Source of the DNA: Tetmemena sp. SeJ-2015
Lineage: Eukaryota > Ciliophora > Spirotrichea > Sporadotrichida > Oxytrichidae
Direction: 5' to 3'
Length of the DNA: 64,000 bases
Assembly (NCBI GenBank): GCA_027382625.1
Contig: JAJKFJ010021811.1
Span: forward strand, 186,001 to 250,000
This document shows, one piece after another, positions 3,935-64,000 of this stretch. The notes under the pieces were generated by a model, which saw only the letters and a list, made by a program, of their open reading frames with translations, was not told the origin of the DNA and searched no databases. The translations under genes and the position numbers were made by a program. Each line of letters starts with the position of its first letter. Position 1 is the stretch's first letter.

Positions 3935-5933
3935 TCAGGCCTTCTCTGGGCAGACAGACTTTTCCTCGAATACAAAAATCAGCAGTATGAGAGAGATTGC
4001 TGAGAGCCCCGCACTCACATAGAAAAAGAGCTCGTAGCCAATTTACTCCAGGAAAAATTTCACAAATACACTGCTCACTATCTAAGCGATAAAAATAACA
4101 CAACGAAATATAAAATATAATGAGTAGATACTTCCAAAAGAGAAAGCTATTCCATATACGATTGCAGAGTGTTCGCCGAAAGTCTTTGCACAGAGGGTTG
4201 GCACTAGAGTGAAATGGCCACCTTCGCAGAATACTATGAATTAATATTTTGAAAAATTCAATTTATTAAAATGAGACATACCCAGATGAAATAGAGTGCT
4301 TTTACTTTGACTGCAAGTGTTAGTGTGGCTCCAAAAATTATCTGCATGATCAGTAAAAGGATGTAAGGCTTCTTGAAAGTTCCCGTGTAGTCAACGAAGT
4401 AGGACCAGATAAATCTAAGGCCTCCGAATACTGAAGAAACTGATCCCACCAGTGTCAAAAAGTTTTCGTCAGCTATGTATTATTGGCCATACTGTTTGAA
4501 GGTATTGATGACAAACATTCCCAAGACTATTATTTATCTTGAGCTCAACTAATGGATGCTTACAAATTGACATGCACGTCATCGCGTACATGACGATGAA
4601 CTGAGGAGATTTCAGGCATTGACCAAGAGTCACCTTCTATTTAGCAAGCTCATCGCTTCTTATAGTTTCCTTGTTGGCATCTATAAAATAGGAAAGATAG
4701 ATCGAGTTGATAATAATTGGTTAGTTGATATTAGATAATTTAGGTTTGATAATTACTTGAGGATAGGTTTATTCTCTTATCATCTTCATCACTTTGCTAT
4801 TTTGACTAAATAAAAAAGATAATTCCTTTTTATAAAATAGACTTAAGATTATCTAAGCTGTTAAGAAGGGGATTCTGAGATTATTCTTCATTATTTATCT
4901 CGCGTTGTTCGTAGTCAATTGTATTGTTTGAGATAGCTGGCTTTTCTTCTTTGTAGGGGAAGAATAGAAATACTGACACGATGGAGATTCCAGCCCAGCA
5001 TATCACCAATACTCTAAGCATCTTTGGAAAATTTTAGTAAACTTACATTAAACAAACAGATATAGTTTTTGTTTAAATCTCGGATTTATGAAACTATTTT
5101 TTTTAGTGCCTAGATTTTATAAATTTAATCAAGGATTGATTAGGTTTAAACGGATTCATCATAGTATCCATTTTTATCTGGATTTTTCCCCTCAGGATTC
5201 ACGATAGCTGTTGATATCAAGTCGAATACAAACGCTCCAAATCCAAATCCGCATAGCACAAGTCCTGTAACCATAATTAAATAAATAAAGCTCTTTCTTA
5301 TTTTAAACCAAGCCCTTGGAGTTTTTGAAATAGTGCCATCCATTATAGACAGGTACGACATACTATACATAAAAGCTTATAATGAAATTAAAAATATCCA
5401 CTTACACTGAATCCATTCATCCAATTAAAAATTATACTTTAGATTAATTTAATTAATTCATGAGTCCAAAGCCTCCTGCATATAGAACATAAAAGGCCCA
5501 GAAATTTGTGCAATAGGAAGAAGCAAGAGTAGTCGAAAGACCTACCACACACCCGATTCCAATTTACCTGAAAACGAAATTAGAAGCATTTCTATCCTTA
5601 CAATCTGCCATCTAATCGCTTTGCGAACCAACTCGCAAAAGGAAATAAAAATCATTGATGTCTCATAAAATTAATCAAAATACAATTGTCATGACTATGA
5701 CTTCGCAAGGGAGGATCAGAAAGACTGTGCTCTTATCAATTGAGGGATCGAACTGATGATAGTAGGACATCACATATGGATTGATATTTCCAGGAATATA
5801 GAGTGCTCCAAAGTACTGTAAGTTATTAATTAAGAGCTCTGAACTAACTTACAAGCATGACTAGGAATCCTGCAAAGACATTGCTTATTCCCTTTAAGGT
5901 TTATCGCTCGAAATCTCGTCCAAACACTTTCAT
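3935..5933 (-). CDS. MFS transporter, oxalate/formate-antiporter or monocarboxylate-like (copy 1)
   Basis: Membrane protein of about 500 aa from MKVFGRDFERQTLKG to VFEEKSVCPEKA and TGA. Blocks in order: YFGALYIPGNINPYVMSYY, FPFASWFAKRLDGR, ASSYCTNFWAFYVLYAGG, FGLMNGFS, YVVPVYNGWHYF, TGLVLCGFGFGAFVFD, a cytoplasmic loop, QCLKSPQFIVMYAMTCMSI, GGLRFIWSYFVDYTGTFKK, then FCEGGHFTLVPTLCAKTFG. This is the layout of OFA/MCT-type major facilitators, which move organic anions across membranes; the substrate is unknown. GT..AG introns interrupt VML/YFG, GRL/Q, GFS/YVV and CMSI/FLG; the first three are shared with the neighbouring copy. At least five IES-like inserts also cut the frame (listed separately). 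Tandem with a closely similar gene just upstream on the same strand. Confidence 0.8.
4092..4130 (-). other. IES candidate, pointer TATC
   Basis: A 39-nt AT-rich insert splits GSI from AQIV of MFS copy 1. The direct repeat is GATA on the plus strand (4088-4091 and 4127-4130). Removing the insert with one repeat gives FGSIAQIVS, identical at this point to copy 2, which has no insert here. It is in frame and has no stop, so support comes from the paralogue. Confidence 0.72.
5043..5151 (-). other. IES candidate, pointer GTTTA
   Basis: A 109-nt AT-rich insert after YYDESV of MFS copy 1. The repeat is TAAAC on the plus strand at 5038-5042 and 5147-5151. Excision gives DESVYQNFPKMLRVLVICW, matching DQVSKNVPKMIQILTICW of copy 2. 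The length is not a multiple of three, so the frame is broken without excision. GT..AG splicing does not restore it. Confidence 0.8.
5274..5310 (-). other. IES candidate, pointer TGGTT
   Basis: A 37-nt insert in MFS copy 1 with repeat AACCA on the plus strand (5269-5273, 5306-5310). Excision yields SKGLVTGLVLCGFG, matching HKGLVTGIVLCGFG of the uninterrupted copy 2. The only GT..AG pair available (ending ACAG) would leave a wrong frame. Confidence 0.85.
5421..5461 (-). other. IES candidate, pointer ATGAAT
   Basis: A 41-nt insert with repeat ATTCAT on the plus strand (5415-5420, 5456-5461). Excision gives GGFGLMNGFS directly before a conserved intron donor GTAAGT; copy 2 reads GGFGLMNGLS at the same place. 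The length breaks the frame and contains no usable splice pair. Confidence 0.87.
5648..5682 (-). other. IES candidate, pointer TATTT
   Basis: A 35-nt insert with repeat AAATA on the plus strand (5643-5647, 5678-5682). It starts with TGA on the coding strand, so it would stop translation. Excision gives MTIVFPFASWFAKRLDG, matching MTIIFPLGSFLLKIING of copy 2. Confidence 0.87.
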
Positions 5934-6196
5934 TTTATGATAATTTTAGGGGGAGTGAAGATTTGATAATTGTTATTTTAGAATAATCTGAAAGAGAGAC
6001 CCCTTAGAATTTGTAAATCAAGAAACTCTAAAGATCCATTTAAAAGCTTTAGTGCTCAGATTGATCAATTAAAGTAATTTAAGAAGTCATATTGATAGCA
6101 GAAATTTAATACTTGAATGTTGATAGATAAATTGAGCTAATTTTACATTATCCATTATCTTTGTCGCCTCTAAGTCTAAATCTTTTGCGCTTACTT

Positions 6197-7899
6197 TCAG
6201 CAAAAAGGCTTCTCTTCAAATACAAAGATAAGAAGCAATAGCGCTATAAAAGAGAGTACTGTACTAGCTTATAGGAAAATATCGAAAGTTTGATCATCGA
6301 GGAAAAACTCCACGAATATGCAACTCACTATTTAAGCTATACTTCCAAATGAGAAAGCTATCGCATAAACCTGAGCTGCGTGTTTCCCAAAATACTTTGC
6401 GCAGGCTGTCGGAACTAGAGTGAAATGTCCTCCTTCACACCAATTTTAAAGTTTAAATATAAACCATATTATAGCGCAAACCCAGATAAAGTAAAGGGGT
6501 TTCACTTTGACAGCTTGTGTAATTGTAGCTCCGAATATAATCTGAATGATGAGAAGGATGATATAAGGCTTCTTAAATGACCCAGTCTTGTCTACTAGAT
6601 AGGACCACACAAAGCGTAATCCGCAAAATATTGAAGCAAAAGCTCCAACTAAGGTCAGAAACACTTCATCATTCTTCATATTAGGATGAGTCTGACCATA
6701 CTACTTGAAGGTATTGAAAACAAACATGCCCAGAAATATTGACAAGCAAGTCATTGAATAGACGACCACAAATTGCTTAGATTTAATGCATTGCCAGAGA
6801 GTGGTCTTTCTTCTGATTGGGAAAGTTGTAGCAGTCGCTCTGTTGTCTATAATTAAGATTAAGACTTTAATGTCTTACTCTCTGTTTGATTTATGATTTG
6901 AATTTCTTCTATCTTTAGAGCATTCTATTTCTCTGCCTCTTTCATTGGAGTATTTGTGATCATGCTAGTTGAGGTTTGATACACAAAAGATTCCAGCTCC
7001 CCTGAAAGTGTGTCCTCTGGCTCCTCTTGATAAGGCGAGAAAAGCATAATTCCAATAACTGAAAGACTAGACCAGCAGATCGTCAATATTTGAATCATTT
7101 TTGGAACATTCTTAGATACTTAATCAGGATAGTAATCGCTCCCTTCATCTGGTGAGATTCCTTCAGGATTCACTATTGCTGTTGAAATGAGATCAAACAT
7201 GAAGGATCCCAGTCCAAAGCCACAAAGCACGATCCCTGTTACAAGGCCTTTGTGCTCTGGGAAATACATCCAGCCATTGTAAATAGGCACCACATACTAT
7301 AAATAGGATATCACTTCTCATAGTTGAGAAATTCAAATATTTGGTTAGGATATCCACTTCATTAATCTCGAATCTTATTATCTATCTAACTTACACTTAG
7401 ACCATTCATGAGCCCAAAGCCTCCTCCATAGAGTACTAGAAACCACCAATAGCTTGTGCAATAGGAGGATCCCAGACATGTCAAAAGTCCGATTGCACAG
7501 CCAATTGCAAGTTATCTGAGATGGATTAGGAATCATTGTAACTTACATTCTTCCGTTTATGATTTTGAGCAAGAAACTTCCCAAAGGAAAAATGATCGTC
7601 ATAAGCAAGGTCTCAAGTGGAAGAATAAAGAAAACTGATCTTCTATCAATAGATGAATCCTTCAAGTACTAATGATATTGCTACACATCTTGAATGAGAA
7701 TGAAAAATATAATTATTTATTTTTACTATAGTAAGACATGATATAAGGATTGATGTTCCCTGGCATGTATAAGGAGCCGAAGTACTAACAATAAGTCAAA
7801 ATATGGGCAAAAATTTACCAACATCACAATAAAACCTCCTATGACGTTACAAACTCCTTTAAAAGTTTGTCTCTTTATTTTTCTCCCACAGCAGATCAT
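6197..7899 (-). CDS. MFS transporter, oxalate/formate-antiporter or monocarboxylate-like (copy 2)
   Basis: Paralogue of the downstream neighbour, about 500 aa, from MICCGRKIKRQTFKG to FEEKPFC and TGA. Diagnostic stretches are NGWMYFPEHKGLVTGIVLCG, FMFDLISTAIVNPEG, GLRFVWSYLVDKTGSFKK, CEGGHFTLVPTACAKYFG and AFSFGSIAQIVS. Introns lie at the same three N-terminal sites as in copy 1 (VML/YFG, GRI/Q, GLS/YVV). It lacks copy 1's inserts but has its own: a 53-nt insert after MSYY, and a 24-nt in-frame AT-rich stretch between AIIW and CEGG that copy 1 has at a nearby site. Function as for copy 1: proton- or anion-coupled transport is inferred from the family, with unknown substrate. Confidence 0.8.
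7678..7730 (-). other. IES candidate, pointer TAT
   Basis: A 53-nt insert in MFS copy 2 with repeat ATA on the plus strand (7675-7677, 7728-7730). Excision gives MSYYHQYLKDSSIDRRSVFF, matching MSYYHQFDPSIDKSTVFL of copy 1. A GT..AG pair exists inside but its use gives a frame ending at TGA. Confidence 0.8.
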
Positions 7900-16600: not shown

Positions 16601-19600
16601 AAAATGAACACACACACACAAACACTTATTAAGTATGCTAGTGTTCATAGAAGAAGAGAGAATCTTTCGTTGATACTTGGGCTGCATAGTAGAGTTTTTA
16701 GTCACATCTTGGTCTCGCGTAAGTTCCTTAAGATAGGGAAATTCTGAAACAAATCAAGAGAAGTTCAATTCTTACACTGGTATAGCTCCTCTAAATCAAG
16801 GCCTTTGAAAGCAGATTTAAGAATCTTCTCCACATAATTCAGCTTCTTGCCTCTCTGATTTATATTAATTATATTCTCCTAAGGCAAGTCTGGAATAGCC
16901 AGAGCTATGCTTTTTAAGTCATCTTCTTTGGAGAATTTAGAGAGTCTCTGCATCATAATAGACCTAGATCGTAGATTTAATCCTTAATTTAAGTGTACTT
17001 ACTTTCTAGGTTGTCTTTTGGGAAGGGGGTTTTCATTTTCTAGATCGATCTTATTAGTGATAAGAGTCTGCTGAGAGAGATTCATTTCATCAAGACCACT
17101 ATTGAACCTGTCACTGGGCTGCAACTTATGAGGAGCTGATCTATCTCTCTAGTTCTGACTTCTACTATCTGCCTAAGGATCCAGGGTATCTGATAACTGG
17201 CTTCCCTAACCGCCTTGATTTATTAAAAATTGAAAATAGTATTTGAGCTAGACTTTGCTCTTAAGCCTTTCTTGAAGTTGTTAAATGAGGGTTTCCTGAA
17301 TCTAAAAATAAAGATGCAAACTTCGAATTATCTAGGCTTTCTTTCCTTGGCTTAGGATGCACTCATTTTAGGAAGCTGAAGATTGCTGCCGCTTGACTCT
17401 CCAAATACTGAGGACGCTTTGACATCGTTATTGAATAAGTTCATGTTGGAAATACTCTTGCTGAACAGAACCTTAGAGATGTTGTTCTTAATATTTGTAA
17501 CAGCTCTGCTCAGGCTTCCTCCAGATCTTGGAGTTAAGCCGGCAGCTTGATTTTCAACATAGGCTGATCTTGCCTTGTTGGCAAGAGCGTTTTGAAAATA
17601 AGCTTGCCTTTTTTTATTCGCCTCCTCCTTCTTCTTTCTCCAGATCTTCAGATTCTACTTAATCTTCGCTTTTTTATTGGCCATGAAGATGAGGTTTGCA
17701 AAGTGCTCTCGCTTCTTCTTGGCCATAAAAACCATTTTCATAAAGTTAATTTCTTGGTTCTCCATATACTTGTCAAGCATTTGCTCCACTCTAAGCACCA
17801 TCATTTTAACATGAGTGGCTGCAATTGCCTTTCCATCTCGAGGTAACTCAAAGGTTTAAGCATATAGGTATTTACTTACGTTCAAGAGTGCATCTTGGTC
17901 ACCAAACATGTCACCAGCTTGGAACTTAGTATACGGATAACCCTTATCAGTGTACATTCTTAAAAATTCGGTAATAAGAATTAAAGAGGAAGATTATTAG
18001 ATCTGATCTGCCCATTTATCAAGAAGAAAACTAAGAAAATAAGTTAAGGGAAATATCATCAATTCATTTCTTACTGTCTTCTGCGTGATCTCCCTTCCAG
18101 TAGAGTACATCTCCTTTAGCAAGCTTGACTTAACGTAAGAGTGGGAGAATCTTCCATTGGAAGTCTGGATCCTGGATGTCCTCTCTGAAGAATTTAACTT
18201 TCTCTATGATCTCTCCGTAGGTGTTGCTCAGCACCTCATCCCTCAAAGAAGGAGGGAGCATTTTTATAAGCTAGCTCTCTTCGTCTTGATTGTGCATGGC
18301 TTGAAAATTGTTCTCCATGAAATTCTTTATCTTGGCTGAGAGTACTTATGGGATTTCATTCTTCAAAAATCACACAAGACATCTTAATGAGAAATTAATT
18401 TTGCAATAGCTTGTTTAGCTAGCGTGATAAGACTTTTGATTTTCTGTTGGAGAGTTGCTTGCTCTTCTATATTGCCTGATATGATTGAGGAGAAGTTTCC
18501 TATAATGAAAGAGTAGAAGCCCACTCCGAAGATCATCCAAATAAGGCAAGACCCATCTCCACAGGCGTTACTGCGGGCAAGTCTCCATAGCCACCGTAAT
18601 AACTGTCTAGGTCGACCAATAATAACATGGATTATAATTAGCAACTTTAATAAAGAGATCTCAAGTACTGGAAAGCGTCATCAGCGTCCTCAAGCTAGTA
18701 TCTCCCGATCCAAGTATCAGGATCGTGATCATAGACCTTCGAAGAGAGAAACCAAAAGCACCCAAACAGGTGAGTCAAGATCAGAGCTGAGATCATACCT
18801 TGCACCAATCTCACAATTGCGAAGTTCATTTTCAGAACGTTCATAAACCGCTTGTACTTCAAGTTGTCTTCCAAGAATAAACAAGGCAATATAAAGTAAA
18901 AACTATTCAAGAATGTGAGGGACTCTAAGATGTTCATGATCTTCAAAGAGCGATAAGTTTTGGCAGTCTGAGCAGCCTGATCAACTTTTGGTAAACTGTT
19001 CCTCCCACAGTTACATACTGAGATGGGAAACAAGCTATGCAATCCAAAAGAAACCAGCCTCTTATATAATTGACCGCTATCTTCTTTAGTTTGAAGTGAT
19101 AGACGCCGAACTTATCTTCAAAAGCTGTGAAGAAGTTTATTATGATGTCCACCATGAAAAGTACGTCCACTATCCACTCCACAATTGCTTAGTTTGTGCT
19201 AGTCTCATCAATGTAAGCTATTCTTTTAAACTTTAAACCTGACAAATTATAATTCTGTAAGGCATATAAGTAGCAGTATAAACGAGCAGATTGATATTGA
19301 TGATATGCCATATGTTCTTTATCTTGCTATTCGCAGTAAGCACATAAACTGGTATCTTATCCAGGTTTTGTATTTCCTCAAGATTCTTTGAAACTCCAAA
19401 CAAGTATGTATCTTATAATAATTTTATTTTAGACTTTTTATATTAGTAAAGTAAATCTTTCTTGCCAAATCATTGAAGAAGTTTATGACCCGAGCTCCTG
19501 CTTTAGCCTTTACGAAGGCCTTATTCCAAAGATTGATCATATGCTCTTGCTTCTCCTCAAGGTCCATGATGTTGAAATAAGAATGATTCTCCTTACAGTC

Positions 19601-21381
19601 ATCGCTGCTGATGCTGCCATCAAGATCCTATAATGAAATTTATCATAATCTTCTCAAAGGTATTTCCATACCTTCGTCTGTTTCTAATTCATCTCCTTCT
19701 CCAGCTGCGCCTTTTTCTTGTTTCTCTTCTTTTATTCATAGTCCTTGAGTAGCACATCTTTCAGCTCTTGGATGGTCATCTCCTTGTCAATTATTATGTC
19801 TAGCTTCAACCTAGATATCATGACTGTCTTCGCCCTCTCAAGTTTCTTCTTCTTCTTTTCTACATTTACAATCTAAATGTGGTTTGCGAATTTGGTGACT
19901 TACCCTAATCCTTGGAGCTGATGTTGATAGACTGCTGGCTAAAGTACTTGCTCTTAGCAGCTGAGCGCATTATTTCAGCGAGGGACTTGTTTCGCTTTAG
20001 AGCTTGCTGCTGTCTAGCCATGGAGATGAGTGTGTCATTTATGTTGAAGACTTGGACCTGCCTCTTGATGTTTGAGACGCTTGAAGTGTCCTATTACTCT
20101 CCCCTGTTTGGGGAATACCCTGACACCATGGATGAACCTGCATTCCTGAAGATGATTTATCATATCGTGATTTGATGCCCTCCATGCTTGCTGTGCGAAA
20201 TCGTATTCACAAATAGAGAATATTCATAGAGTATTTTGATGCTTTAGGGATTTATTATCCCCCAGGAGTTCAAAATAGCTGGAGGCACTTTTCTTCTCTC
20301 TGAAGTTTTTATCCTCTTCATTCAACTTAAATTTAGAAAAAGATTGTCAAATTTTGAGGATTCTTTCTTGCATTTTACGCCCTCTTTCAGTTTGCTAGGG
20401 TTCATCTTCCTCTCCAGTAATTTAAATCTGTAATTAAATTAGATAGTTAATTTCCTTTAGCTTTTGCCTCTTTTTACATCTGTAGTGGATCTCATGAGTC
20501 CAAGTTAGTTATTAGTTTTAGATCTTCCCACCAATAGATTTAATAACCGCTGAATTACGTTACTAAAAATTATCTGCATATGACTTATTAGAGATCCCTT
20601 TGAAAAGCTTTTGCTTTGCTCTTCCCATTGTGGGTGGTAAGAGAGTGTTTTGTTACTATATTTAGCCAGTAAGAAGGGATTGAGAGGGTTGCTGCCGACG
20701 CTATTCATTCGATTTCCAATCTCAGACTACGGATTAGACTTCTGCTGCTGCATTTTGAAAGCTGAATCCGCAAACGAATGATACTTCTGCTGGTTAGGGG
20801 TGTTGTGGTCAGTGCCTGTCATATTTTAGATGTTGAGATTTTGAATGTTGAATTGGAAAATACTGTTTTGATTGCCTGTGGTGTAGGGCGTAGAGCCGAT
20901 TGACCCTCCTTGAAAGGGATTGCTTTCGTTCTAATTCCCCCTCAGTTTGGAACTTGTGAGGCCTCCTTAATTTATATCGTTCTAGTTGAAGGCGAAATAG
21001 CCACTTAGGGTTTACATAGTGTCTGAGACTCTCTCGAAACCGCCTCCACTAGTCCCACTGTATCACGGTTACTGCCCTTAGGCTCTAGCTTCTCTTCCGC
21101 TGTTGAACTATTTATTCTTATCAAAGATGCTTTCAATCGACAGTAAAAATATACTCACCTAAAATATACTTTGAAACAATCGTCTCTTTTTAATCCTCAT
21201 TCTATTCCACGTTATTATCAAGCACTATATTTATTCTTGAGTTCAACGATTGACCTTAACCCTTTGGCATTTTCTAGGCTTATTAATTTGAAGAAGCCTA
21301 CATTTTCTGATTGGGACTATTGCGGGCTTGCAAGTTCCCCTTCAGCGCCTCCCCTTTTTTCTTTTACGCCTGCTGATTCAT
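13635..21381 (-). CDS. Cyclic-nucleotide-gated-type potassium channel with very long C-terminal tail (possibly two genes)
   Basis: The N-terminus from MNQQAQKKKGEALKGNLQAR is Gln/Asn/Gly-rich. The channel core follows: DVLFMVDIIINFFTAFEDKF (S2), GWFLLDCIACFPSQY (S3), KLIRLLRLPKL (S4-like), RLVQGMISALILTHLFGCFW (S5), pore WSTQTVITV-GYGDLPAVTP, S6 IWMIFGVGFYSFIIGNF, then a cNMP-binding fold (KFQAGDMFGDQDALLN; DGKAIAATHVKMMVLRVEQM). GYGD marks K+ selectivity. The tail is a Lys/Arg coiled coil and a long Ser/Gln-rich region, continuing to SGSYLELPQAVRQ and LGSIQELRY with TGA. Several GT..AG introns occur, one about 20 nt. Two homopolymer base losses break the pore and S6 frames. No clear intergenic gap separates tail and channel, but two adjacent genes remain possible. 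Likely role: membrane-potential or cAMP/cGMP-linked control of ciliary behaviour. Confidence 0.65.
14189..14229 (-). other. IES candidate, pointer AAAGATAG
   Basis: An 8-bp direct repeat (CTATCTTT on the plus strand at 14181-14188 and 14222-14229) flanks a 41-nt AT-rich insert that brings in TGA. Excision gives HEEGQEKIGEIDFVDEQPKT in one frame, in the tail of the channel gene. Confidence 0.82.
16590..16632 (-). repeat. (GT)n tract, probably inside a short intron
   Basis: A run of alternating CA/TG bases lies in the channel tail gene. On the coding strand it forms GTGTTTGTGTGTGTG..GATAG, a 30-nt GT..AG unit whose removal keeps the frame (ILNK/RAISRKGSM). Read as coding it would give Cys-Leu-Cys-Val-Cys-Val, unlike its surroundings. 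Confidence 0.5.
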
Positions 21382-23712: not shown

Positions 23713-25350
23713 ATGTCTAATTCCAAGGAGATGATGAACAAGGCCTACATCGACCACAAGCTCGCTAGCATATTCGAGCCCATGGTCAACTAAATCCTCC
23801 AAGAGCAGCCTGGAGACACAGTAAGCCATTTCTTTCTCCCTATTGAAGAATAAAATGTCTATAATTATTATTGTCACTTGTAAATTGAAGAGACTAAGAG
23901 AAAGTGTAGATTGACTTCATGATAAAGTACTTGAAGGAGCACTACGGAAACAGACCCTCCAGTAAGTACAAATAAAGTTCTCTTTACTATCCTCTTATGA
24001 AACCATTTTGCATTCATACTTGCTAATAAGAGGCCATAAAAACTATACTTGACAGTCTTATAATTTCCTTTTAGTAAATGCAAACGAAAGAATAATACAC
24101 ACTTTATTATGAATGTATCTATCTATGTATGCGGGTCTAAATATAGGTATATTTTTAAGAATGGAGCTGGAGTTCTTGCGCTTTGAGACATAGAAGCTGA
24201 AGGATATGGTAGGAGTAAGTGATTAATTAAGTGAGAGACATGATTTATTTTTTCTGAACGGATTAAGAAAGCGCTGATCTCTAAACTTTTTCTCTTAGGA
24301 TGAAGATGAGGCCTCTGAAAACGAGTCCATCCCATCAGAGGAGGATGAATACATAGATGACTTGCCAGAGGTTATTCAGCAGACAAAGAAGAAGGGTCCT
24401 CGCACATCCGTTTCAGCAGAGGTCTTCGGCACATGGAACAAGAAGGGCGACTTCAAGGCTCCCTCATTTGAAAAATCATCAGAGGTCAAAGCAGCTCTAC
24501 AGAAGAGACTTGAGCAGGCTTTCATGTTCTCATGCCTCAACCCGCAGGAACTCGAGATAGTGCTCAACGCAATGCAGTATATAAAGAAACACCCGGGAGA
24601 TCTCATAATAAGAGAGGGAGATGATGGAGACAACCTATATGTGGTCGAGAGTGGAACGCTCACTTGCACCAAGCATTTCGTAAGAATCAATCAACTCTAA
24701 ATATCTTTGACACTCTCTATATCAATATAATGAAGAGGGTATTTAATTGGGCCCATCTATAGAAAGGCAATCCAGAGCCTACATTCTTGAAGGAGTACCA
24801 CCCAGGAGAAGCATTCGGAGAGCTCTCACTACTCTATAACGCACCTAGAGCAGCCACCATAGTCGCAAAAACTGAGGCCGAGCTCTGGTCCTTGGACAGA
24901 AACACCTTCAATCATATCGTGAAAGATGCAGCCTCCGAGAAGAGAGAGAAGTACGAAGAGTTCTTGAAGAAGGTGAGAATCTTACAAAACATGGATGAGT
25001 ACGAGAGAAGCAAGCTCGCTGATGCACTCAGAGAGAGCTGGTACAAGCCCGATGATTTTGTTATCAGAGAGGGAGAGGAGGGTCAAACTTTCTATCTCAT
25101 CATGAGTGGAACAGCAGTTGCAACGAAGACACTTGAACCTGGAAATGCACCAGTCGAGGTCTATAAATACCAACCTGGTGACTATTTCGGAGAAAGATCG
25201 CTGATGAAGAACGAGCCAAGAGCTGCAAACATTATCGCTACCTCAACGCTGCAAGTAGTTGCATTAGACCGCCATAGCTTCAAGAGACTCCTGGGACCCA
25301 TTGAAGATATTCTAAAGAGAAACCTCGCTCTCTATAAATAGTACTACTGA
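23713..25350 (+). CDS. cAMP/cGMP-dependent protein kinase regulatory subunit (PKA-R-like)
   Basis: Starts MSNSKEMMNKAYIDHKLASI. The docking/dimerisation helix pair continues VNQILQEQPGDT / IDFMIKYLKEHYGNRPS, then NANERMELEFLRFETQKLKD. The inhibitor segment is GPRTSVSAEVFGTW, with Ser at the pseudosubstrate site as in RII. Two tandem cyclic-nucleotide-binding domains follow, with phosphate-binding cassettes FGELSLLYNAPRAAT and FGERSLMKNEPRAAN. It ends NLALYKQYY and TGA. Introns: 23821-23909, 23962-24074, 24209-24298, 24680-24762, all GT..AG. One 69-nt IES candidate lies between ANER and MELEF. About 370 aa, the family's usual size. It holds the catalytic subunit inactive until cyclic nucleotide binds. 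In ciliates PKA tunes ciliary beating and may work with the neighbouring cNMP-gated channel gene. Confidence 0.93.
24094..24162 (+). other. IES candidate, pointer AAGAAT
   Basis: AAGAAT at 24088-24093 and 24157-24162 flanks 69 nt that put TGA in frame. Excision gives NANERMELEFLRFETQK, the expected linker after the docking domain of PKA-R. No GT..AG pair fits. Confidence 0.88.
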
Positions 25351-28309: not shown

Positions 28310-28352
28310 TTAAAATTAACTCGAGTTCTAATGTGTCTAGTAAAAAGAGAAG

Positions 28353-28511
28353 GGGAGGGGAAGAAGTGCACCTCCCGCCCTTTTATGGTAAAAATAGCTC
28401 GAAAATCGCTCTATTTAGGCTGAATGGGCAAAAATGCAAAAATTAAAGTTTTTTGACCTTCTAAATTTCTTGAGGTGAAATTTCATGATTTCAATTTCTT
28501 CAAAAATTCAC
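28353..28511 (+). repeat. Left arm of terminal inverted repeat
   Basis: Begins GGGGAGGGGAAGAAGTGCAC on the plus strand. It pairs with the right arm at 29020-29180, whose complement begins with a run of Gs followed by ACGGAAGTGCAC. Mismatches are scattered, so the arms are old or have diverged. Confidence 0.75.
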
Positions 28512-29019
28512 TAAAATATGGTTTCAAGTCAAATTTACCATTAAAATAATATTTTAACATAATATAGGCAAATTTAGGCAGATAAATTGACCAGTATTTT
28601 AAGCAAGATCTACAATACTCGCCACAGATAGAGGCTATAAGTTATATCTACATAGTATTTAATATTGAGTTTTTTACGTCTTCAACATAGAGAATTTTCC
28701 TGAATTTATTACTGAAAAGAACATATGAAAGTTAAGTTCAAAGTCAAAGATAATTTCATCTATTGCAGTATTTGGCTTTCTTATCTCGACTTTAAACAAA
28801 GAGATGATCTCGCTAATTCTATTTTATAAAGATAGTAATGCTTTAATTACGATTTTGATAATAGCATTTAAACTTCTTGGGAATTAATTGCAGAACTTCT
28901 CCCACCTATTTTTTATAAAAAATTTCTTAGGCTCACTATTTTGAAGAAAAATATATAGGGGTTCCCAAAAACATGAAAGCATTCATCAAAATTAGACTTA
29001 ATAACAAAAAAATAGAACA

Positions 29020-29180
29020 TTTTTGAAAAAAAATGAAATCATAAAATTTCACCCTCAAGGAAATTTCGAAGGTCAAAAACTCTTAATTTTTTGGCATTTT
29101 TGGCCCATTTCGGCCTACATGGACGATTTTGGGGCTATTTTGACCATAAAAAGGGGGGGAGGTGCACTTCCGTCCCCCCC
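29020..29180 (-). repeat. Right arm of terminal inverted repeat
   Basis: Inverted copy of 28353-28511. Its outer end is GGAGGTGCACTTCCGT followed by a C-run on the plus strand. Confidence 0.75.
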
Positions 29181-29183
29181 CCA

Positions 29184-29647
29184 GAAATAAAATGTTATTT
29201 TTATTTAGTAGCCCTAAATCGAAAAGAGACTACTCTAAGTATTGCGCTTTAATTGGGAGTTCTGGAGAGGAGAAAGTTTCGAAAGATTGCCAAAGGTGGG
29301 AGATGCCTGCTGTCGACTGCCATTTAGGATTGAAAGGTTATTCAAAGAGGAGATTTGAGTTTAATTGGGTTTCAGAGGAGTTTACTGCATATTTATTGAG
29401 CTCCTTGGAGAAATGAAGTAATTTTAAGGACTTTTATTCTGAGCTTTCATTTTGCTGACTTAAGTTCTGATTTTATTATGACCCGTTTATTTGCCCAATT
29501 AAAATTAATTCAGAATTTCACAACTTGTGGGAGATTCATCGATGAAAAAAGTGGACAAAAAAAACATAGTGAAATAGAAATTTTACTGAAATTAAATTTA
29601 GTTAGACTTTAAAAGCTTCTAAAATTGAGTCTAGTTTAGGAATAAGT
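29184..29647. other. Intergenic region with one weak + ORF
   Basis: Just outside the inverted-repeat element. An ORF from 29191 to the TGA at 29414 would give MLFLFSSPKSKRDYSKYCAL and about 75 aa, but it has no recognised domain and is flanked by AT-rich DNA. I see nothing else. Confidence 0.4.
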
Positions 29648-40489: not shown

Positions 40490-43400
40490 TTAGACTTCGT
40501 CTTGTAATGATAATACTTAAATGCTTTATAAACATGAAAAGGAAGAGTTTATTAAACTTTTCTAGGGCCTGGTTGATTTGATCAACGTTTACTGGCTTGT
40601 GAATGATTTCAGTGATTCCTTTTTCATAGCAGAGCATCTTACTCTGATCGCTAATGTATGCTGTCACTGCAATTAATTTCAAAATCACTCAAACACACAT
40701 ATAAAGTAAATGCATTATGAATTATAGTGAGCTTGTCTTCATTTGCGTAGAAGCCGCTGGGGTGTCTTTCTTTGAACTCCCTGAGTATGAGTTCTGAGGC
40801 TTAGTATCCATCTAGGATAGGCATATTCAGATCCATCAATATGGGAAAAAGACACATTCAAATCCCTATTTATATGAGTTTGTATCTTAGCTGGCAGCAT
40901 TTCTTATCTAGATTAGCTTTGAACATCTCAAAAGCTCAAAATACAGAGAACACATTAATATAGAGTTAAGCTTGCTACCCGTTTTGAGCCTAGTCCACAT
41001 AAAGTCCAAAGACATCTCTTAAGATAGCCTCCAAAGGAATGAGGTTGAACTAATTGTCATCCACTATCATTATCTAGGCCTTGCAATCACAAAGAGGCAG
41101 CTTTAAATTGATGGAGGAGCTGTGCCTCTTTCCGAACTTAGACTTGGTTCTCTTCTTGGGGCTGATCTCATTTAAGAAGTCTGGATTGAATTAAGCAGAG
41201 GGAGCATGCATCAGCTCTTCCAGATCCATGTCGTTGTCCATTTGCAACTTCATCATTAGTAATTTCAGAACAATATCAAGTTAATATGCAACAAGTTGTT
41301 GTGAGGGTTCTCTATGTGAGCCATGCTATGCTCTTAAAGCGTGATTTCATTCTCTTGAGATTTGTTCGCCTCCCCGTTTAGTAAATTTGCCTCAGAGTGT
41401 CGTAGGCTGATATCCAATAACTATTCATGTGTCATAAATGGCTTGCCGATTTCAAACTTGTCAACTCTGTAAAGGGGGTATCACCTCCTCCTTAAACTTT
41501 TAAATAAAACTTTTTACATTCATAAGTAAACGTCTGAGCCGTTTGCAGGACTTATTCTGCTCCTATTAACTTAAAAATATCGTAAGGGGAGAATGCAAAA
41601 TTTTGCAAATTCAATAACCTCACATTTAATTGATTTTGAATGCATTGAAATCTTTGCTCGAGATGAAGTTATCAGATTCACCACCAATGCCTTTTTAAAT
41701 GATCTGATTCGAGGGTTTATCCTGCAAGTTTATCTTGATCTGAGGAGAACTGTATTTGTAGTAGTGAGCTAAACTTTAAAACTAAACATTTGTGAATGAT
41801 CTAAGGAGTCATTCCTTGGCTTCTCTGGCTGGAGCAAACCTTGGCGTATGGGCATCAGTGAAGATATGCTTTCATCCACGTTAAAGTCACTCGTAATTTG
41901 GCTCTAGTTGTTGGAGACCTGTAGTCCGTACTTCTTTTTCTTCTCTCTGTCTTGCTTGACTGCTGTGGGGTTCAGTTAGTGAATAAAAAATCTTTTACTC
42001 GGAACTGGTGTATGAGCTCTGATCTGCCTTCGCTGCTCCTTTTTCTTCTATGCGATTTTTTGCCGAACTTGTGCCTTTTGCTATTCTTAGTAGAGGGGGG
42101 TACCTCCAAAAATTCACAAAATATTGGCCATGTTAAATTGTCCTCCAATTTAGCAATCTCAGTGGCTTTCCTTTTGCTGTTCAATCTTTGGAGATTGATG
42201 AAAGTCTACTCTTGACCGCCAATGGGCAAAAAATTAAATTTGGGAAATCTTAAGTGCTCTAGTACACTCATGCGCTTTGACCTCTACTTTGATATCTTCA
42301 TCTCTTCATCATCACCATTCACAGCTGTGTGATTAATCTTAGTTTAAATACATGACATATAAATTGCTAACTCTTATCATTAATCTTGTCTTGAGGAGGG
42401 AAAGGTCTGCTGCTTCTTTGAAGGATTCTGTTTCTTTGGGTAAAAATTATAAAAAAAAGAAGAGTTTTACTATATGTAATTACTATACCCGTTATTTACA
42501 TAATGAATTTAACATATAGGACTACTTTTTTAATGACGATTATTTATTGCTGTTAAAGTTCAGATTAAGATTAACTATGGAGTTCATGGAGCTAATTTTG
42601 CCAATGGTTGGGTGGTTATGATTCCTACTGCCCATCATGTGATTGGGACTAGTGCCCATATTATCCGGGGCAAGGTTGTTACCGGGGCTCATAGGATATC
42701 CGTAGTTACGTGAGGCTATTAAGTTGCTGAAATTAATTGAGGAAAGGTCCACGTCCCCACCTCCGAAGAACCTTTTCTAAGAAGGATTCGAGCATAAATA
42801 GAGATTAAACTATGTAGATAAAGTTTTCAGACCGTTGGATAAAGGAGGCTTCTTATTAAACTCTTGCTTGAACTGCTATTGTAAGTTGTTGATAAATATA
42901 AGCTTAAAATAAAAATCAGCATGAAGAAAGCTTAAAATTGATGTTAATTGTGAAGGGTAGACTAGGAATGGCTTCCACTTGAGAAGAAGAAAGATTCTTG
43001 CTGGTCCTTATTGAGCTCCCAGCATCAAGATTTTTAGACTTGCTATCTTGAATGATCTGAATCTTGTACTCATTAGGTAACTTGACAGTAACCTATTTTT
43101 AGAATGGTGGAGGGAAGCTCTGCTACCTACTCATCTACTTCCTATATTCAATTATAGATAAGTGAAAGGTAATAGCATATTCTCTTCTATATTGCAAGTT
43201 GGGGTGATTCTGCAGGCAGGCTTCTTGCTGTACTTGGATTTTGAACTCCACAGTGGTGCCTTCACCTTCTTTGGAGTAGACTTGGATTCCTCCCTTCATA
43301 GCTTGAGCAAGCTCCTTGCTGAGACTCAGTCCCAATCCTATTCCAGAGGTACCTAGTACTCCAAGCTCATTAGCTTCATGCGCCAGCCCACCATGCTTGC

Positions 43401-46099
43401 TAAAAGTTTAGAACAGACTCCATTAAAGTTAAAACTTTGAAATTTTATTGATTATTGAGAACTCCTTAGTTTGGGCTCACTCATTCCTATGCCTGAGTCT
43501 TGTACTCTCACCACGAGGATTCCGCAGGACGAGCAAGTGACTGAGTGATTACGACTAGAGTGCTCCGGATTTTAGCAAGATAATAAAAATACTTATTATA
43601 ATTAGTGAGTGGTCTGAATTCTAAAGTAACTTTGATTTGGCCTTGAGTGGTGAATTTAGCAGAGTTTTAGACTATATTAACTAGGATTTGCTAGTATCTC
43701 TCCCAGTCAGTTACTAAATACCTAGGCAAATTCTAGTCCTCCACTAAACCCTAACTCTAAAACTGAAGTAATCTGTAGATTAATTTTTCATTTAATAATA
43801 AAAGATTGTTTACTATTGTCTCGACCTTGCCATCGAGTTAAAAATAAATAACTATAGATAGAAGTTGGATCCGAAAAAGATCCAATATTTGCTGAGACTC
43901 ATAAATAAATTTAGAGACTTTTCTTTAGGGCGGTGGGAAGAAATGTTTAGAGTGATCTGGCCATTCTTATACTGCTGAATGTCTATCTAGCTCTTTATGA
44001 GGAGATAGATTAGTCTGCTACTACAGTTAATTATTTGGAAGTTAAGGAAAATATTTTTTTGCATTTATTCTATTAAGAGAAGTACTTTATCCATTCAGCA
44101 GCTAATTCTTTTGAAATATTTGGCCCATAATATTATTGCTCCCATTATAATTAAAAATATATTTTAGAATCTTAGCTCCACCAATCCAGATAGATTTATT
44201 ATGGAATTAAAAGTAATGAATGATGTTTTTAGAATTAAGTGGGTTCATCAGTTCATGGGACAGGGTAGCTGTGAGTAGTTCCTGGTACTTAACTTCGTTC
44301 TTCTGCTGCTCAGCCCTCAGCAGCTGCGAAATGTTTCTTATTAGGATTAACAAGCACTCTTTGTCGTTGAATACCAAATTTATCCAAAAAAATAGCAAAA
44401 ATAAATGCACATACACTTAATAAATTAATTTAAATTCCTAATGTCAAATTCTAGCACTTCAGAATCTGACTAGCAAAAAAATGTAAATATTAGATGGATA
44501 GCAGTCATCTTGGTTTTTGGTTGGAGAGTCCACAAGAAAAGAAAATATATTCTAATAAGAAAATATTGCTTGGGCTTGTTGTCTTGCAAATAATCCTCTA
44601 TATTGCAAAAGTTAACAAAAAAACTTATACAATATGTTTAGTGGATTAAATAAATATTTTTTGGAATAATATCCTCGAAAGACTTAGAGGCCAAGATCAT
44701 GCTCTATGTTAGAGGCATACCCAAAGTGTAAGGAATGAAGAGTTCGTGGCTTAAGAATTCTTGCCGCTGTTCTGAGACTTCTTCAAACAACAGGAATTTC
44801 TATAGCTCTAAAATAAATAACCATCATAAATGGAAATGATGAATTATATTTGATCTTCATTCATAAACTAGATCTCAAAATCAGATGTGGTGATCAGCAC
44901 TCCCTAAGGAAAGTTGCCCAGCACTGATTCATAAGAAGACTTAACAATTTAAAATTTAAATATGAGTATATTTACTCTTATCTGACTTTAGGGTTTGCGA
45001 CATGTAGTTGTACATGAACTGTCGTTTTCGAGACTATACCACCTCCAGCAGCCCCATTATGAACAGACAAATTGCAATTCCTATATTAGAATAATGATAT
45101 TCAGTCATTCTTTATTTAATTGCAAGTAGAGAAATGAAGATGGGGTTGTAGATCCCATAGGCCCCGCGAAAGTGGAATGTTAGAAGCCATTCCCGTCGAT
45201 ATAAACATTTCGCTGGATCATAATTTGCATAAGGAACGAATTTGCGAGAAATTAAATATTAAATATAATGATCACAAGCAAATTAAATGCAGCTGAGCTA
45301 AAAAGGCACTCCTCGCAAATCTTAAACAGCCCCACAAACACTATCTAAACTTAATTTACTATTGCCACTTGAAGAGCTGACATGTATAAACCTTTTAGCT
45401 TAAGCCAATTTATATCATTGAGAAAATTAATCTTTAAGCATATCTCAGTTTTGAAGGAGGGCTTCACTCCGATAGCAAACGGGCAAATGAAAATCAGTAG
45501 GAGATAAATAAATGAAAGAAATATATAAAATAGAAAGATAGCAGTATTTGGAAATGCCATATTTGTACTTGGAAATGACGACAGCTGTTGCGTAAATTAT
45601 AATCATCACAGACCAAACTATAAGATTTATTTTCTCGTTATCCATCCCCATCTCATTTAAAGCTATATAGAAAAAGATCGACAATTTAATGTGCTGATAA
45701 TATCTCAACTAGATCGTGTTTCTATAGTAGTACTGAAATATATTTTTGTCGAAGTAAGCGATGAGTCTTGTCACCAGGGCAGCCAGCATTAAGAAGAGAA
45801 TGAAAAGATTGCAGTTGAATCACTCATTCTGCCTCTCTCTATTGTACTTCCGCAGAATGTTGGTTTCTTTTATAGGATCTCTGAACTTATGCATCAATAC
45901 AAAATGAATCCCTCAAATCCAAATGCCTTTAATATGACTTATTGATGAAGGCTCTAATATATTTCAGAGCACAAGGTGTTTTATCCTTCTCAGGCGGTGG
46001 TTGCTGAACCTCTGTCCTCCTTCTAAGAGTCATAGAGCCCTCGAAATCAGAGCCTATTTGGTAGAGGGAGGATCTGTTGGTTGACATTCTTCTCTTCAT
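40490..46099 (-). CDS. Membrane-bound hybrid histidine kinase with C-terminal receiver domain
   Basis: Starts MKRRMSTNRSSLYQIGSDFE. Hydrophobic segments near 45.3-45.8 kb (NLIVWSVMIIIYATAVVISK; YCYLSILYISFIYL) form the membrane sensor part. The HisKA H-box is ATLSHELMNPLNS (His is the phospho-acceptor). HATPase: N-box RYQQILVNIVQNSAKFT, G1 VQDSGIGMSEPKL, G2 GTSGIGLGLSLSKELAQAMK, then GGIQVYSKEGEGTTVEFKIQ. The receiver domain has IMIVDDNQFNLIPLEAIL, ILMDLNMPILDGYQAS with the phospho-Asp, and AVTAYISDQSKML with KPV. So a phosphorelay input-kinase-receiver protein, common in ciliates; the ligand is unknown. Three IES candidates lie in the receiver alone, and more breaks occur between HisKA and HATPase. 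The exact stop after QALEKFNK is uncertain. Confidence 0.88.
40676..40724 (-). other. IES candidate in receiver domain, pointer TAATT
   Basis: AATTA on the plus strand at 40671-40675 and 40720-40724. Removing 49 nt joins NEDKLTI to IAVTAYISDQ, the conserved receiver strand beta-4. The length breaks the frame. Confidence 0.87.
40844..40876 (-). other. IES candidate in receiver domain, pointer CATAT
   Basis: ATATG on the plus strand at 40839-40843 and 40872-40876. The 33-nt insert brings TGA in frame directly before the phospho-acceptor motif. Excision gives LRYKLILMDLNMPILDG. Confidence 0.9.
40937..40972 (-). other. IES candidate in receiver domain, pointer AGCTT
   Basis: AAGCT on the plus strand at 40932-40936 and 40968-40972. 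The 36-nt insert puts TGA in frame. Excision gives AQNGQQAFEMFKANLDKKCC, the usual receiver alpha-2/beta-3 region. Confidence 0.9.
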
Positions 46100-60284: not shown

Positions 60285-60329
60285 GAGTTAAAAAAAACTA
60301 AAGGGATTAATTAAGACATGCATGATAAA

Positions 60330-63300
60330 TATAGCTTTCGACTTTACTCTAAAAAGCTTTAGCAATTCTCTAATGCTGATTATAAATATTGATTAGTCGA
60401 AAGTTGGATATGCAAAACGAAGTTTGTGGAATGTCCTGTAGAAATGCTTTAAAAATTGTAGTAGCTTCAATCTTATCGACTCTAAGAGGCTTGAGCCATT
60501 ATCGTGCCTATTAAATACCAGCATAGTTTGTATGCGAGTGAGTCAAATCATACTTGTGGGGATCACTGATTACTTCAAAGTCGAAGTCGATCTAATCAAT
60601 AGCGATCACATGCTTTCTAGCATAATTTTGCTTAACTCCAGTCAAGAAACTCTAAGTGAAGAAGAATCCTGACAGCCAGAAGGTGCTTGGGGCGCCATTA
60701 TCAAATAGAAGTATACTTAACAATGAATTTCAATCTCTAGACAAAGTCAACAACCCAAGAGGCCAAAATTCATGTAAATAATTGAAGGATAAGACTTCTT
60801 TGCCCAGAGTCCGGGTACTATATTATCGATACAATAACTGGCAGCCTCTAATTCTAACGACATAACCACTTCTCCTTTTATGGCTTTGCCGAGATTGATA
60901 AGTGAGCCTCTAAAATATGTATCTCAAAAGCTCTTGTTAGAGCACAGTATTCATGGATTCCTCGTAATATTATGCTTTCTCCATAATTTTGCTTCTTTGA
61001 TGCCTCATCAATATCAAAGTTAGGTGGGAGTTTGTCGAGCACACCCTTCGCCAATTCGTTCAAGATCTCGTCTTGAGATTTGCCAACACCGCCAGCCTTT
61101 CTAGGCATGAGGGAAAGGGCTGTTCCAAGCAGATTATTAGTGTCGTTAATTGCACTAGTGATATCTGCGTTATCATGGAGACCGAAATTCATACTTCTCT
61201 CATCTGCTCCTTGATATACTCAATGTAGCCTGCGAGAGGTCCATCAGGTGGTACTATGTAAACTATTTCTTATATTCAGTCAAGGTATAATTAAAGATAA
61301 GGTTTTACTTTCCACTCTCAGAGAACTTTTAGGATTAAGACATCAGGGTTGTAGAAGTCTGAGAGGATCTCATTTATTGCCCTTCTATAAACATGTATTT
61401 CAAGGCTGCGAACGGAATCTAAATTTATGATTGATAGATAGATGTTCCAACCAAGAGGTCCATACTTTCTTCTTTCCAATATGAGTGCGTTGAAGAAGCA
61501 AAGTGCCCACATCAGTCTCTTCAAGGCTTAAGAATCAAGTTTTGCAAAGTAAGAACCTAGGATGTTATTTCTAAGACCTTTTGGAGGCTCGTTGGTGATC
61601 TTAATTCCATTTTGAAGGATTGAGACTGGGAATTTCTCACTAGGCATAGAAGTAAGCCATAATAAATAAATTGTTATTAGAACTGCCTTTATCTTCTACA
61701 ATCTCCTCAATGATTCCATCAAGCATAGGCATGAATGATTTGAAGTAAAGTTTTGTAGTACGACCCACTCTTGCTGATCAGCTGCGAATAGGATGGCCTG
61801 ATTTTGAAATGAGTCTTTGGAGAATCTTACTTTCTTTTACTCTTAAAGCTTTTGAAGTTCAGACATGGGATCTGCTCCTTTTTTATGCATGCATCTCTAT
61901 GATGGAGGTGTGATATAATAGAGTCCAAGCTCCTTATCCTTTTTAATGAGCTTTTAAATAAATTTGTCAAGATTCTCAGTACGATAGCTCTTCTGAAGAG
62001 AGTGAGCTCATTCCACACACCTGGCCATAGTTCCTTCAAGCTTTGAGGAGAAGCAGAATTGAAGATCTTTTCCCAATCGTGAATTAAATTTCAAAGTCTC
62101 TGTCAAATCCCTTGAAGGCAGTAAGATTTCTCCCATATCCTTACCATCCATTATCTCCTGTAGGGTTAGCTCTGTCAAAGTCAATTGATGTAGCACTCTT
62201 CATTTATAGGAATCTAGCTTCAAGAGGATCGAGCTCTTTATTTTCCTCCATGATTTTCATGCACATCAAGAACGAGAAGAGCAGCTTATCTTTCTCAAAG
62301 AGAGATCTACAGACATTAACGTAGAGCAATTTTTGGAACTTCTTGATGAAGAAGTGCTTTCTGGCATTTCTATCTCCCTTGTCGACTTTTCCATCAGCCT
62401 TGTCGAGAGCTCTTTCATAGATCATACATGCCATCTTATATAGTTTAAGTTTATTGAGAGAGTACTGGTACATAGGGTCTACATTCATTAAGATAGCCTA
62501 TCTGTTACAGCTACTGGCACAAATTGCTCTCTGATATTTTCAATTTGCTTCATTGTGGACTCCATTTCGATAAGTTAATAATTTGTCTGAAGAACCAGCA
62601 ATCTAGTTCAGAATCTTGTCTTTCAAATTATACCATGAGCATTTGATCTTCTAATCCCTCTTGTGTAACCATGAAGTTCATAATTATATCGACTTTTGAA
62701 AGCTTTGTGGTCACATAGAACCTGAAGCTGGTAGAGTATTCCACTATTTACAAACTTGAATATCTCCAATTAAGATATGAACTACCCTTCTTTTCAATTT
62801 GCTTTCCTAATAGAGGTTCAAGCATGGGATCGAAAGTCTCATTGGCGTCTTCTAAGATGACTGGGTTTCCAAGATTGACGCAGTTTTCTAGGATTCTGCT
62901 CATTACTTTAGCGTCCATAGTGGGCTTGATTACTTGGATCTTATTCTTTAATATTTCTTCTTGATCCAAATGTTGGCCTGCATTTGAGGATCGATCATAA
63001 GAGTCCTTAAAATTGTAAGTTTTCTAGAATGATGGCATTATCGATAGAGAATTGATCTTGAGGTAGCTTGTCAATCAGCCATTCAATTCATGAACATATC
63101 AATGAAAAATTTTATGGAAAATACGTTCGATTGTCTGATTCTGACTTGGTTTCCAAGGATAGCATTCAAACTGATATCTTCATTGCTCTTGATGGGAATT
63201 AAAAAACCTTAAGCACATCATCTTGATAGTTTGGCTCAGCAATAAGAGGCTTAAGCCATACACACACATACATAATAGATAATTATCCTTCTCGAAGTTC

Positions 63301-64000
63301 ACGCATCTCTTTAAGAGATCATGATTTAGCCACAATAATAGCTCCATCGGGTGGCTTTTTGAAACCTATCATACTATATGATACCTTCTCTCTCATCAAG
63401 CTATATTTAATTTAGAGAAATAAGAGCTTCCTTTGGCCAGGGCAAGAACAAATTTAATGATAGCACAACAGTTAACAAGCACTGATAAAAATCTCTCTAT
63501 TCACTTATTCTAAGTCTTCTCTTAAAGTCCTCTCCAATAGGTGACATAGCAAGTACGACGTGGCAGCTAGTTTTAGCCTTTTGAATGAAATCAAGCATAA
63601 TCTCCTAATCAGTATAGTTCTTATAATTGGGATTATTCTTATTCACGTCTTTCATTTAGTCCAGGATGTTTCCAATTTCATCTGCCTCAGTGTAGAGGTT
63701 TGGAATCTATAAACCATCATAATAACCAATTGATGTTCAAAATGTTGTTGATATCTTCCACGAAAGCCTCATTTGTGATTTGGGTGTCTGAAAATAGGAA
63801 AACGGTCTGCTTCTGATCCACTCCACAGCCAAAGAACAGCTTCTCCTTCATATCGTCTCTCCAAGCCTTGAAATCGTAGTTCTTTGAAATTTCAATACTG
63901 AAGCTCTTCACAAATCATCATCTTAATATCTTTGCAATGAAAGTTGCTAATTCAGTGAGGGATTTTCTACCAGAGCCTCTAAAGTGTAAAAGAAGGCCAT
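60330..64000 (-). CDS. Axonemal-type dynein heavy chain, C-terminal part (5' end beyond window)
   Basis: From the right edge leftward the dynein motor appears in order: [20 protein letters not shown] and EDINNILNI (AAA4), a stalk/AAA5 region with [20 protein letters not shown] and [67 protein letters not shown] (AAA6), [95 protein letters not shown], and near the end [23 protein letters not shown] and V-Q-RL use TAG for Gln. It drives ciliary beating by ATP-dependent microtubule sliding. Many frame breaks; two short IES candidates are resolved. The block of about 60 residues usually found before STGHSTNF is shortened or missing. Confidence 0.92.
60705..60723 (-). other. Micro-IES candidate in dynein gene, pointer TTG
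   Basis: CAA on the plus strand at 60702-60704 and 60721-60723. Removing 19 nt gives [20 protein letters not shown] in one frame, as in dynein heavy chains. Confidence 0.78.
60761..60785 (-). other. Micro-IES candidate in dynein gene, pointer TC
   Basis: GA on the plus strand at 60759-60760 and 60784-60785. Removing 25 nt joins LWAKKSYPS to WVVDFVQRLKFI and repairs the frame. The pointer is only 2 bp, so the edges are less certain than the presence of an insert. Confidence 0.7.

What the first reader, a model, noticed from the sequence alone, without database searches (positions are those of the whole stretch)
3935..64000. Window is germline (micronuclear) ciliate DNA: genes are interrupted by pointer-flanked eliminated sequences
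At least fifteen short AT-rich inserts in ten genes are bounded by perfect direct repeats (2-9 bp). Removing the insert plus one repeat restores both the reading frame and a conserved protein motif: PKA-R linker, receiver domain, sugar-porter YLSE signature, dynein FxFF region, and MFS paralogue identity. Most inserts lack any GT..AG pair that would work, while true GT..AG introns coexist in the same genes. This is the expected signature of IESs removed during macronuclear development.
Basis: partly seen in the sequence, partly recalled or inferred. Interest (0 to 1): 0.95.

Follow-up and report, generated by a model that had tools for sequence, protein, structure and literature searches.

The report
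Ciliate germline DNA with excised inserts
This stretch looks like germline DNA of a ciliate related to Stylonychia, whose genes are cut up by short AT-rich inserts that the cell must delete when it builds its working nucleus; the phenomenon is well known, but some inserts seem to be present on one germline copy and absent from the other.

Summary
The finding holds in substance. The window lies in a 146-Mb assembly of a hypotrich (spirotrich) ciliate: TAA/TAG read as Gln, C4A4 telomeres, best named protein hits from Stylonychia lemnae. I verified 12 inserts of 24-109 bp in six genes by homology. All 12 are flanked by perfect direct repeats (3-8 bp; 11 of 12 at least 4), none has a GT..AG solution, and removing the insert plus one repeat restores motifs seen in orthologues, a paralogue or protein families. 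GT..AG introns in the same genes mostly lack repeats. Further support: five 39-54-bp inserts present in a second haplotype are missing from the window, which keeps one repeat copy each; four of five telomere-capped contigs searched have uncapped homologues running past the telomere position. Corrections: one repeat-flanked gap is an ordinary intron (PKA-R intron 1), and the other dynein frame breaks I examined look like single-base errors. One capped contig shows the opposite of the simple expectation. No same-species macronuclear DNA or RNA was available, so elimination is inferred, not shown. A known kind of system; the less ordinary part is presence/absence polymorphism of IESs between germline haplotypes.

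The parts
24088..24156 (+). IES, 69 bp, pointer AAGAAT, in PKA regulatory subunit linker
   Evidence: removal gives NANER|MELEFL, S. lemnae P0004 has NERMELDFL; identical in haplotig C4055
40937..40972 (-). IES, 36 bp, pointer AGCTT, receiver domain
   Evidence: Response_reg restored after removal of the three receiver inserts; present in C1177
40844..40876 (-). IES, 33 bp, pointer CATAT, receiver domain (KLI|LMDLNMP)
   Evidence: present in haplotig C1177
40676..40724 (-). IES, 49 bp, pointer TAATT, receiver domain (TII|AVTAYIS)
   Evidence: present in C1177
5648..5682 (-). IES, 35 bp, pointer TATTT, MFS-B (IVF|PFASW)
5421..5461 (-). IES, 41 bp, pointer ATGAAT, MFS-B (GLMN|GFS); absent from paralogue MFS-A
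5274..5310 (-). IES, 37 bp, pointer TGGTT, MFS-B (KGL|VTG); absent from paralogue MFS-A
5043..5151 (-). IES, 109 bp, pointer GTTTA, MFS-B (ESV|YQNFPKM); a neighbouring deletion without repeat gives the same peptide
4092..4130 (-). IES, 39 bp, pointer TATC, MFS-B (FGSI|AQIVS); in frame without stop, so visible only by homology
7678..7730 (-). IES, 53 bp, pointer TAT, MFS-A (SYY|HQYLKD); absent from paralogue MFS-B
   Evidence: present with 7 mismatches in C4055
47215..47246 (+). IES, 32 bp, pointer TGGATAAG, sugar porter (MMIG|QVYLSES)
   Evidence: Sugar_tr matches in two frames
63909..63932 (-). IES, 24 bp, pointer AAGA, dynein heavy chain ([13 protein letters not shown]); a neighbouring deletion without repeat gives the same peptide
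   Evidence: PDB dynein alignment needs a gap there
41249..41292 (-). candidate IES, 44 bp, GTTGCA; coding-potential evidence only
44807..44853 (.). 47-bp insert with TCT repeat present here, absent from haplotig C1177
25183..25187 (+). empty site (one TATTT copy) in the GDYFGER motif of PKA-R; haplotig C4055 has a 42-bp insert here
20823..20826 (-). empty site (ATTT); C4055 has a 44-bp insert
19559..19563 (-). empty site (AAGGT); C4055 has a 39-bp insert (GT..AG possible on the + strand only)
19027..19030 (-). empty site (GAAA); C4055 has a 54-bp insert
29351..29356 (.). empty site (AGATTT); C4055 has a 44-bp insert
23821..23909 (+). spliceosomal intron GTAAGC..GTAG, PKA-R (control; no flanking repeat)
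   Evidence: S. lemnae DT|IEYMI
23962..24074 (+). spliceosomal intron GTAAGT..TTAG, PKA-R
24215..24298 (+). spliceosomal intron, PKA-R
24680..24762 (+). spliceosomal intron, PKA-R
7297..7394 (-). spliceosomal intron, MFS-A (same position as 5363-5405 in MFS-B)
5363..5405 (-). spliceosomal intron, MFS-B
28352..29182 (.). MITE-like element with roughly 155-165-bp imperfect terminal inverted repeats, absent from haplotig C4055

Best explanation
The window is micronuclear (germline) DNA of a hypotrich ciliate near Stylonychia. The inserts are internal eliminated sequences (IESs). Shown from sequence: short AT-rich inserts flanked by direct repeats (pointers), lacking splice signals, whose removal with one repeat copy restores conserved coding. 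Inferred from the known biology of hypotrichs: during development of a new macronucleus after sex, the inserts are cut out as DNA and flanking coding segments are joined at the pointer, leaving one copy. The chromosome is fragmented and C4A4 telomeres are added. True GT..AG introns stay in somatic DNA and are removed from RNA. Some IESs segregate as present or absent between two germline haplotypes.
For: 12 of 12 verified inserts have a 3-8 bp direct repeat and no GT..AG solution (null). Response_reg rises from at best 26.6 bits in a single frame to 61.1 bits over 1-110/111 after removing three inserts; MFS-B goes from no match in 3 of 3 frames at E<=0.5 to 102.4 bits over 3-346/347 (its introns were removed too). 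S. lemnae proteins run uninterrupted across all six junctions they cover. GC: inserts 21.7%, introns 28.9%, exons 41.9%. The five 39-54-bp C4055-specific inserts carry 4-6 bp repeats with precise empty sites in the window. PKA-R exon differences between haplotypes are 0, 0, 11 by codon position, so the gene is under selection. Four of five capped contigs searched have uncapped homologues continuing past the telomere. 150 DDE_3 transposase matches among the 150 scored of 921 candidates.
Against: No macronuclear DNA or RNA of this species was seen. C672 is telomere-capped and has a 37-bp AATCT-flanked insert that the uncapped C3247 lacks, the reverse of the simple expectation (C672 may be a chimera). 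None of five capped contigs whose other end I read has a telomere there, so they are not complete somatic chromosomes as assembled. Presence/absence between haplotypes at 5% divergence is a high turnover. Single-base assembly errors weaken frame-only arguments, and a coding-potential model did not separate real from pseudo-pointers well (198 against 162).
Confidence: 0.93

Rival explanations
1. The inserts are non-canonical introns, retained in somatic DNA and removed from RNA.
For: C672, capped by a telomere, carries a repeat-flanked insert. Intron/IES interconversion is described in spirotrichs (passages of PMC9797194).
Against: 0 of 12 have GT..AG, while 9 of 10 intron cases looked for in the same genes do (the tenth was wrongly specified). 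I saw no common end sequence beyond the repeats. Repeats fit DNA joining, and introns mostly lack them. Of the five precise haplotype inserts, 4 lack GT..AG on either strand and the fifth has it only on the + strand.
Confidence: 0.04
2. Assembly artefacts or pseudogenes: frame breaks come from sequencing error or decay.
For: Many single-base frame slips by eye in dynein and in capped contigs.
Against: 24-109-bp inserts with repeats are hard to explain as base-calling errors, and the five that lie in haplotig-covered sequence are present there with repeats intact. Haplotype differences in PKA-R exons are all at third positions.
Confidence: 0.01
3. On the sub-claim of polymorphism: the five C4055-specific inserts are not a true germline polymorphism, because somatic reads removed them from the window contig during assembly or polishing.
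For: All five are missing in the same direction. Telomere-capped contig ends suggest that somatic reads are in the data.
Against: In PKA-R the window keeps a 69-bp IES and lacks the 42-bp one in the same gene, hence presumably at the same somatic read depth. At 44807 the window has an insert that C1177 lacks.
Confidence: 0.35

Closest known systems
Hypotrich IESs and pointers (Oxytricha trifallax, Stylonychia, Tetmemena)
   Same: Variable pointers, short AT-rich IESs in coding exons, introns coexisting, C4A4 telomeres and code 6 (these two recalled for the named species), many Tc1/mariner-type transposases. O. trifallax median IES 73 bp and pointers mostly under 10 bp (PMC10901763 section 18).
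   Different: Species not identified. My set is shorter (24-109 bp, middle values 37 and 39), probably because short inserts are easiest to verify. No scrambled gene was looked for systematically or established. IES presence seems to differ between haplotypes.
Tetmemena sp. micronuclear genome (PMC9797194, passages)
   Same: Stylonychia-like hypotrich germline with IESs and TBEs.
   Different: That assembly is 237 Mb in 28,446 contigs, N50 14.7 kb; this one is 146 Mb in 5,213 contigs, the window's own contig being 279 kb. Not the same assembly.
Paramecium / Euplotes TA-bounded IESs
   Same: Short AT-rich germline inserts in exons.
   Different: 5 of 12 pointers here contain no TA.

Membership tests
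hypotrich IES | direct-repeat pointer at both ends | tested here: met
   12 of 12, 3-8 bp; random expectation for at least 4 bp is 2.4%
hypotrich IES | removal with one pointer copy restores coding | tested here: met
   12 junctions, Pfam for receiver and MFS-B, S. lemnae orthologues for six junctions
hypotrich IES | precise empty site with one pointer copy | tested here: met
   shown between haplotypes, not between somatic and germline DNA: the five inserts of 39-54 bp in C4055; 10-, 14- and 64-bp indels there have no repeat
hypotrich IES | absent from somatic DNA of the same species | not testable with these tools
   two window stretches searched in the own genome (PKA-R; 38500-45500) gave only one further near-identical copy each (C4055, C1177); no somatic copy was recognised
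hypotrich IES | host is a hypotrich (code 6, C4A4 20-nt telomere) | tested here: met
hypotrich IES | RNA-guided, transposase-assisted elimination | not testable with these tools
   needs development experiments; transposase genes present
spliceosomal intron | GT..AG ends | tested here: not met
   0 of 12
Paramecium/Euplotes IES | TA in the boundary repeat | tested here: not met
   5 of 12 pointers lack TA: AAGAAT, AGCTT, ATGAAT, TGGTT, AAGA

The most novel reading that the evidence does not exclude
Within one assembly's germline, IESs inside genes segregate as present or absent between homologous haplotypes (five in the C4055 alignment at about 5% divergence, one the other way in the C1177 alignment at about 9%). 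One is a 42-bp insert in the GDYFGER motif of PKA-R. If real, IES birth and precise loss are ongoing and can be studied in this genome.
Probability: 0.55. Interest if true: 0.55.

Novelty: new member of a known kind. Interest (0 to 1): 0.4.

Why it matters
It identifies an assembly as hypotrich germline, in which ordinary gene prediction will fail: code 6, IESs and introns must all be handled. It also gives a worked rule for telling IESs from introns in the same genes. The haplotype presence/absence sites would let one ask how IESs arise and are lost, including whether loss copies the somatic version back into the germline.

Tried and rejected
A gene finder on codon usage with pointer and intron jumps found 198 pointer jumps against 162 with pseudo-pointers, too weak to use, so I relied on homology. 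A simpler gap scan of 52 gaps generally scored unflanked joins highest. The GAGAC repeat in PKA-R was rejected after the S. lemnae alignment. Dynein frame breaks other than the one verified were read as single-base errors by eye, not counted formally, and some remain unexplained. The C4A4 pattern count is not above its control (100 against 103), because the reversed pattern also matches C4A4 arrays; the evidence is its position at exact contig ends. The 123-bp insert missing from capped C4311 and present in three uncapped copies (two of them identical) has only a 1-bp exact repeat and lies in AT-rich, apparently non-coding sequence, so I do not count it. One intron case of ten was given a wrong peptide and is left out of the intron count. 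Rfam (gathering threshold) and tRNA scans of the window found nothing.

Papers: search listings; outline with abstract and section 18 of PMC10901763; passages of PMC9797194. The others listed were seen as listings only. I make no claim that IES polymorphism is absent from print; my two searches touching it were narrow, and PMC9797194 mentions a Stylonychia two-strain interconversion case (Mollenbeck 2006, not read).

Full report
Setting. The window is bases 186001-250000 of contig C2873 (278,892 bp) of a 146.2-Mb, 5,213-contig assembly. Under the standard code the longest open frame is 192 aa; with TGA as the only stop (code 6) frames reach 720 aa. A self-trained codon model uses TAA and TAG freely as Gln (203 and 217 against CAA 325, CAG 229). 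Genes found include two tandem MFS transporters, a PKA regulatory subunit, a receiver domain near a histidine-kinase ATPase match (one gene is inferred), an SNF2 helicase, a sugar porter and an axonemal dynein heavy chain.

Which organism. Repaired PKA-R has as best hit a Stylonychia lemnae protein (80% by BLASTP; 83% in the alignment); repaired MFS-B has one at 55% and 64%. Contigs begin or end with exactly CCCCAAAACCCCAAAACCCC or its complement: 9 start with it at base 1, and C4087 and C4084 end with it. So this is a hypotrich close to, but not, S. lemnae. I could not name the species.

The inserts. For each suspected insert I asked which single deletion yields the peptide expected from an orthologue, paralogue or domain family. 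Twelve cases in six genes gave a deletion with a direct repeat: PKA-R AAGAAT; receiver AGCTT, CATAT, TAATT; MFS-B TATTT, ATGAAT, TGGTT, GTTTA, TATC; MFS-A TAT; sugar porter TGGATAAG; dynein AAGA. (For two, GTTTA and AAGA, a neighbouring deletion without repeat gives the same peptide.) None has GT..AG. In the same call, nine of the ten intron cases that I looked for have GT..AG solutions, with repeats 0,0,0,1,4,0,0,1,0; the tenth had a wrongly specified peptide and by eye is GTAAGC..ATAG. Random deletions have a repeat of 4 bp or more in 2.4% of trials.

Independent checks. The S. lemnae proteins cross all six junctions that they cover (PKA-R one, MFS-B five) without interruption. By eye the two MFS paralogues lack one another's inserts at all six sites (five of MFS-B, one of MFS-A) while sharing intron positions. 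With the three receiver inserts removed, Response_reg scores 61.1 bits over 1-110/111; the raw frames give 26.6 bits, 15.6 bits and nothing. Inserts are 21.7% GC against 28.9% for 9 introns and 41.9% for 6 exon stretches.

Haplotypes. C4055 (22.4 kb) aligns to window 6790-28352 at about 95% and, at 83%, to 29199-29478. It carries eight indels of at least 8 bp relative to the window: the five of 39-54 bp have 4-6 bp flanking repeats and the window keeps one copy; the 10-, 14- and 64-bp ones have no repeat. The 42-bp insert would add 14 residues inside GDYFGER of PKA-R. C1177 aligns at 91% over 39011-44942 and lacks a 47-bp TCT-flanked insert that the window has; it carries one 9-bp extra there. 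Five of the twelve IESs fall in haplotig-covered sequence, and all five are in both haplotypes with pointers intact. Mismatches there: 14 of 240 bases in IESs, 18 of 501 in six introns, 38 of 1899 in seven exon stretches. PKA-R exon mismatches are 0, 0 and 11 by codon position.

Chromosome fragmentation. I searched five telomere-capped contig starts (C298, C672, C586, C4311, C4966). Four have uncapped homologues, 92-99% identical, that continue beyond the telomere position; C4966 has none. This is what telomere addition at a germline-internal site predicts. Results against a simple reading: none of these five contigs has a telomere at its other end, and capped C672 carries a 37-bp AATCT-flanked insert, shared in diverged form with uncapped C5175, that uncapped C3247 lacks, although C672 and C3247 differ at only 46 aligned bases in about 2.9 kb. 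C672 may join a somatic end to germline sequence; I cannot show that.

Mobile DNA. The genome has 150 DDE_3 transposase matches among the 150 scored of 921 candidates; 3 of 14 control genomes also ring. This is as expected for a germline with Tc1/mariner-type elements; that these are TBEs is inference, and bacterial contigs in the assembly could add some. The window holds an 830-bp MITE-like element absent from C4055, with 39 further copies at 80-85% among the 40 places scored of 645 candidates.

Verdict. The micronuclear reading is well supported and ordinary for a hypotrich. Its limits are the missing somatic DNA, small counts made by hand, and single-base errors in the assembly. The less ordinary element is the haplotype polymorphism of IESs. 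It is more likely real than not, because PKA-R keeps one IES and lacks another within a single gene, but collapse with somatic reads is not excluded.

Noticed in passing
window 28352-29182: MITE-like element with roughly 155-165-bp imperfect terminal inverted repeats, absent from haplotig C4055, 39 further copies at 80-85% among the 40 places scored of 645 candidates.
   Followed up: partly
window 50191-51200 and 51347-52398: Partial tandem duplication, about 88% identical, inside a coiled-coil-like gene; local paralogy of the kind linked to scrambled genes in PMC9797194.
   Followed up: no
C672:509-915 (L037): A second repeat family of about 400 bp, 37 further copies at 78-82% among the places scored, present in a telomere-capped contig.
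   Followed up: no
L044 2521, L045, L046: AATCT-flanked 37/39-bp insert present in capped C672 and uncapped C5175 but precisely missing from uncapped C3247.
   Followed up: partly
window 60300-64000: Several single-base frame slips by eye in the dynein gene, suggesting an error-prone, perhaps low-coverage long-read assembly.
   Followed up: partly
P0004 (S. lemnae PKA-R): The public S. lemnae protein carries 11 extra residues exactly where this species has intron 24680-24762, possibly an unspliced intron in that annotation.
   Followed up: no
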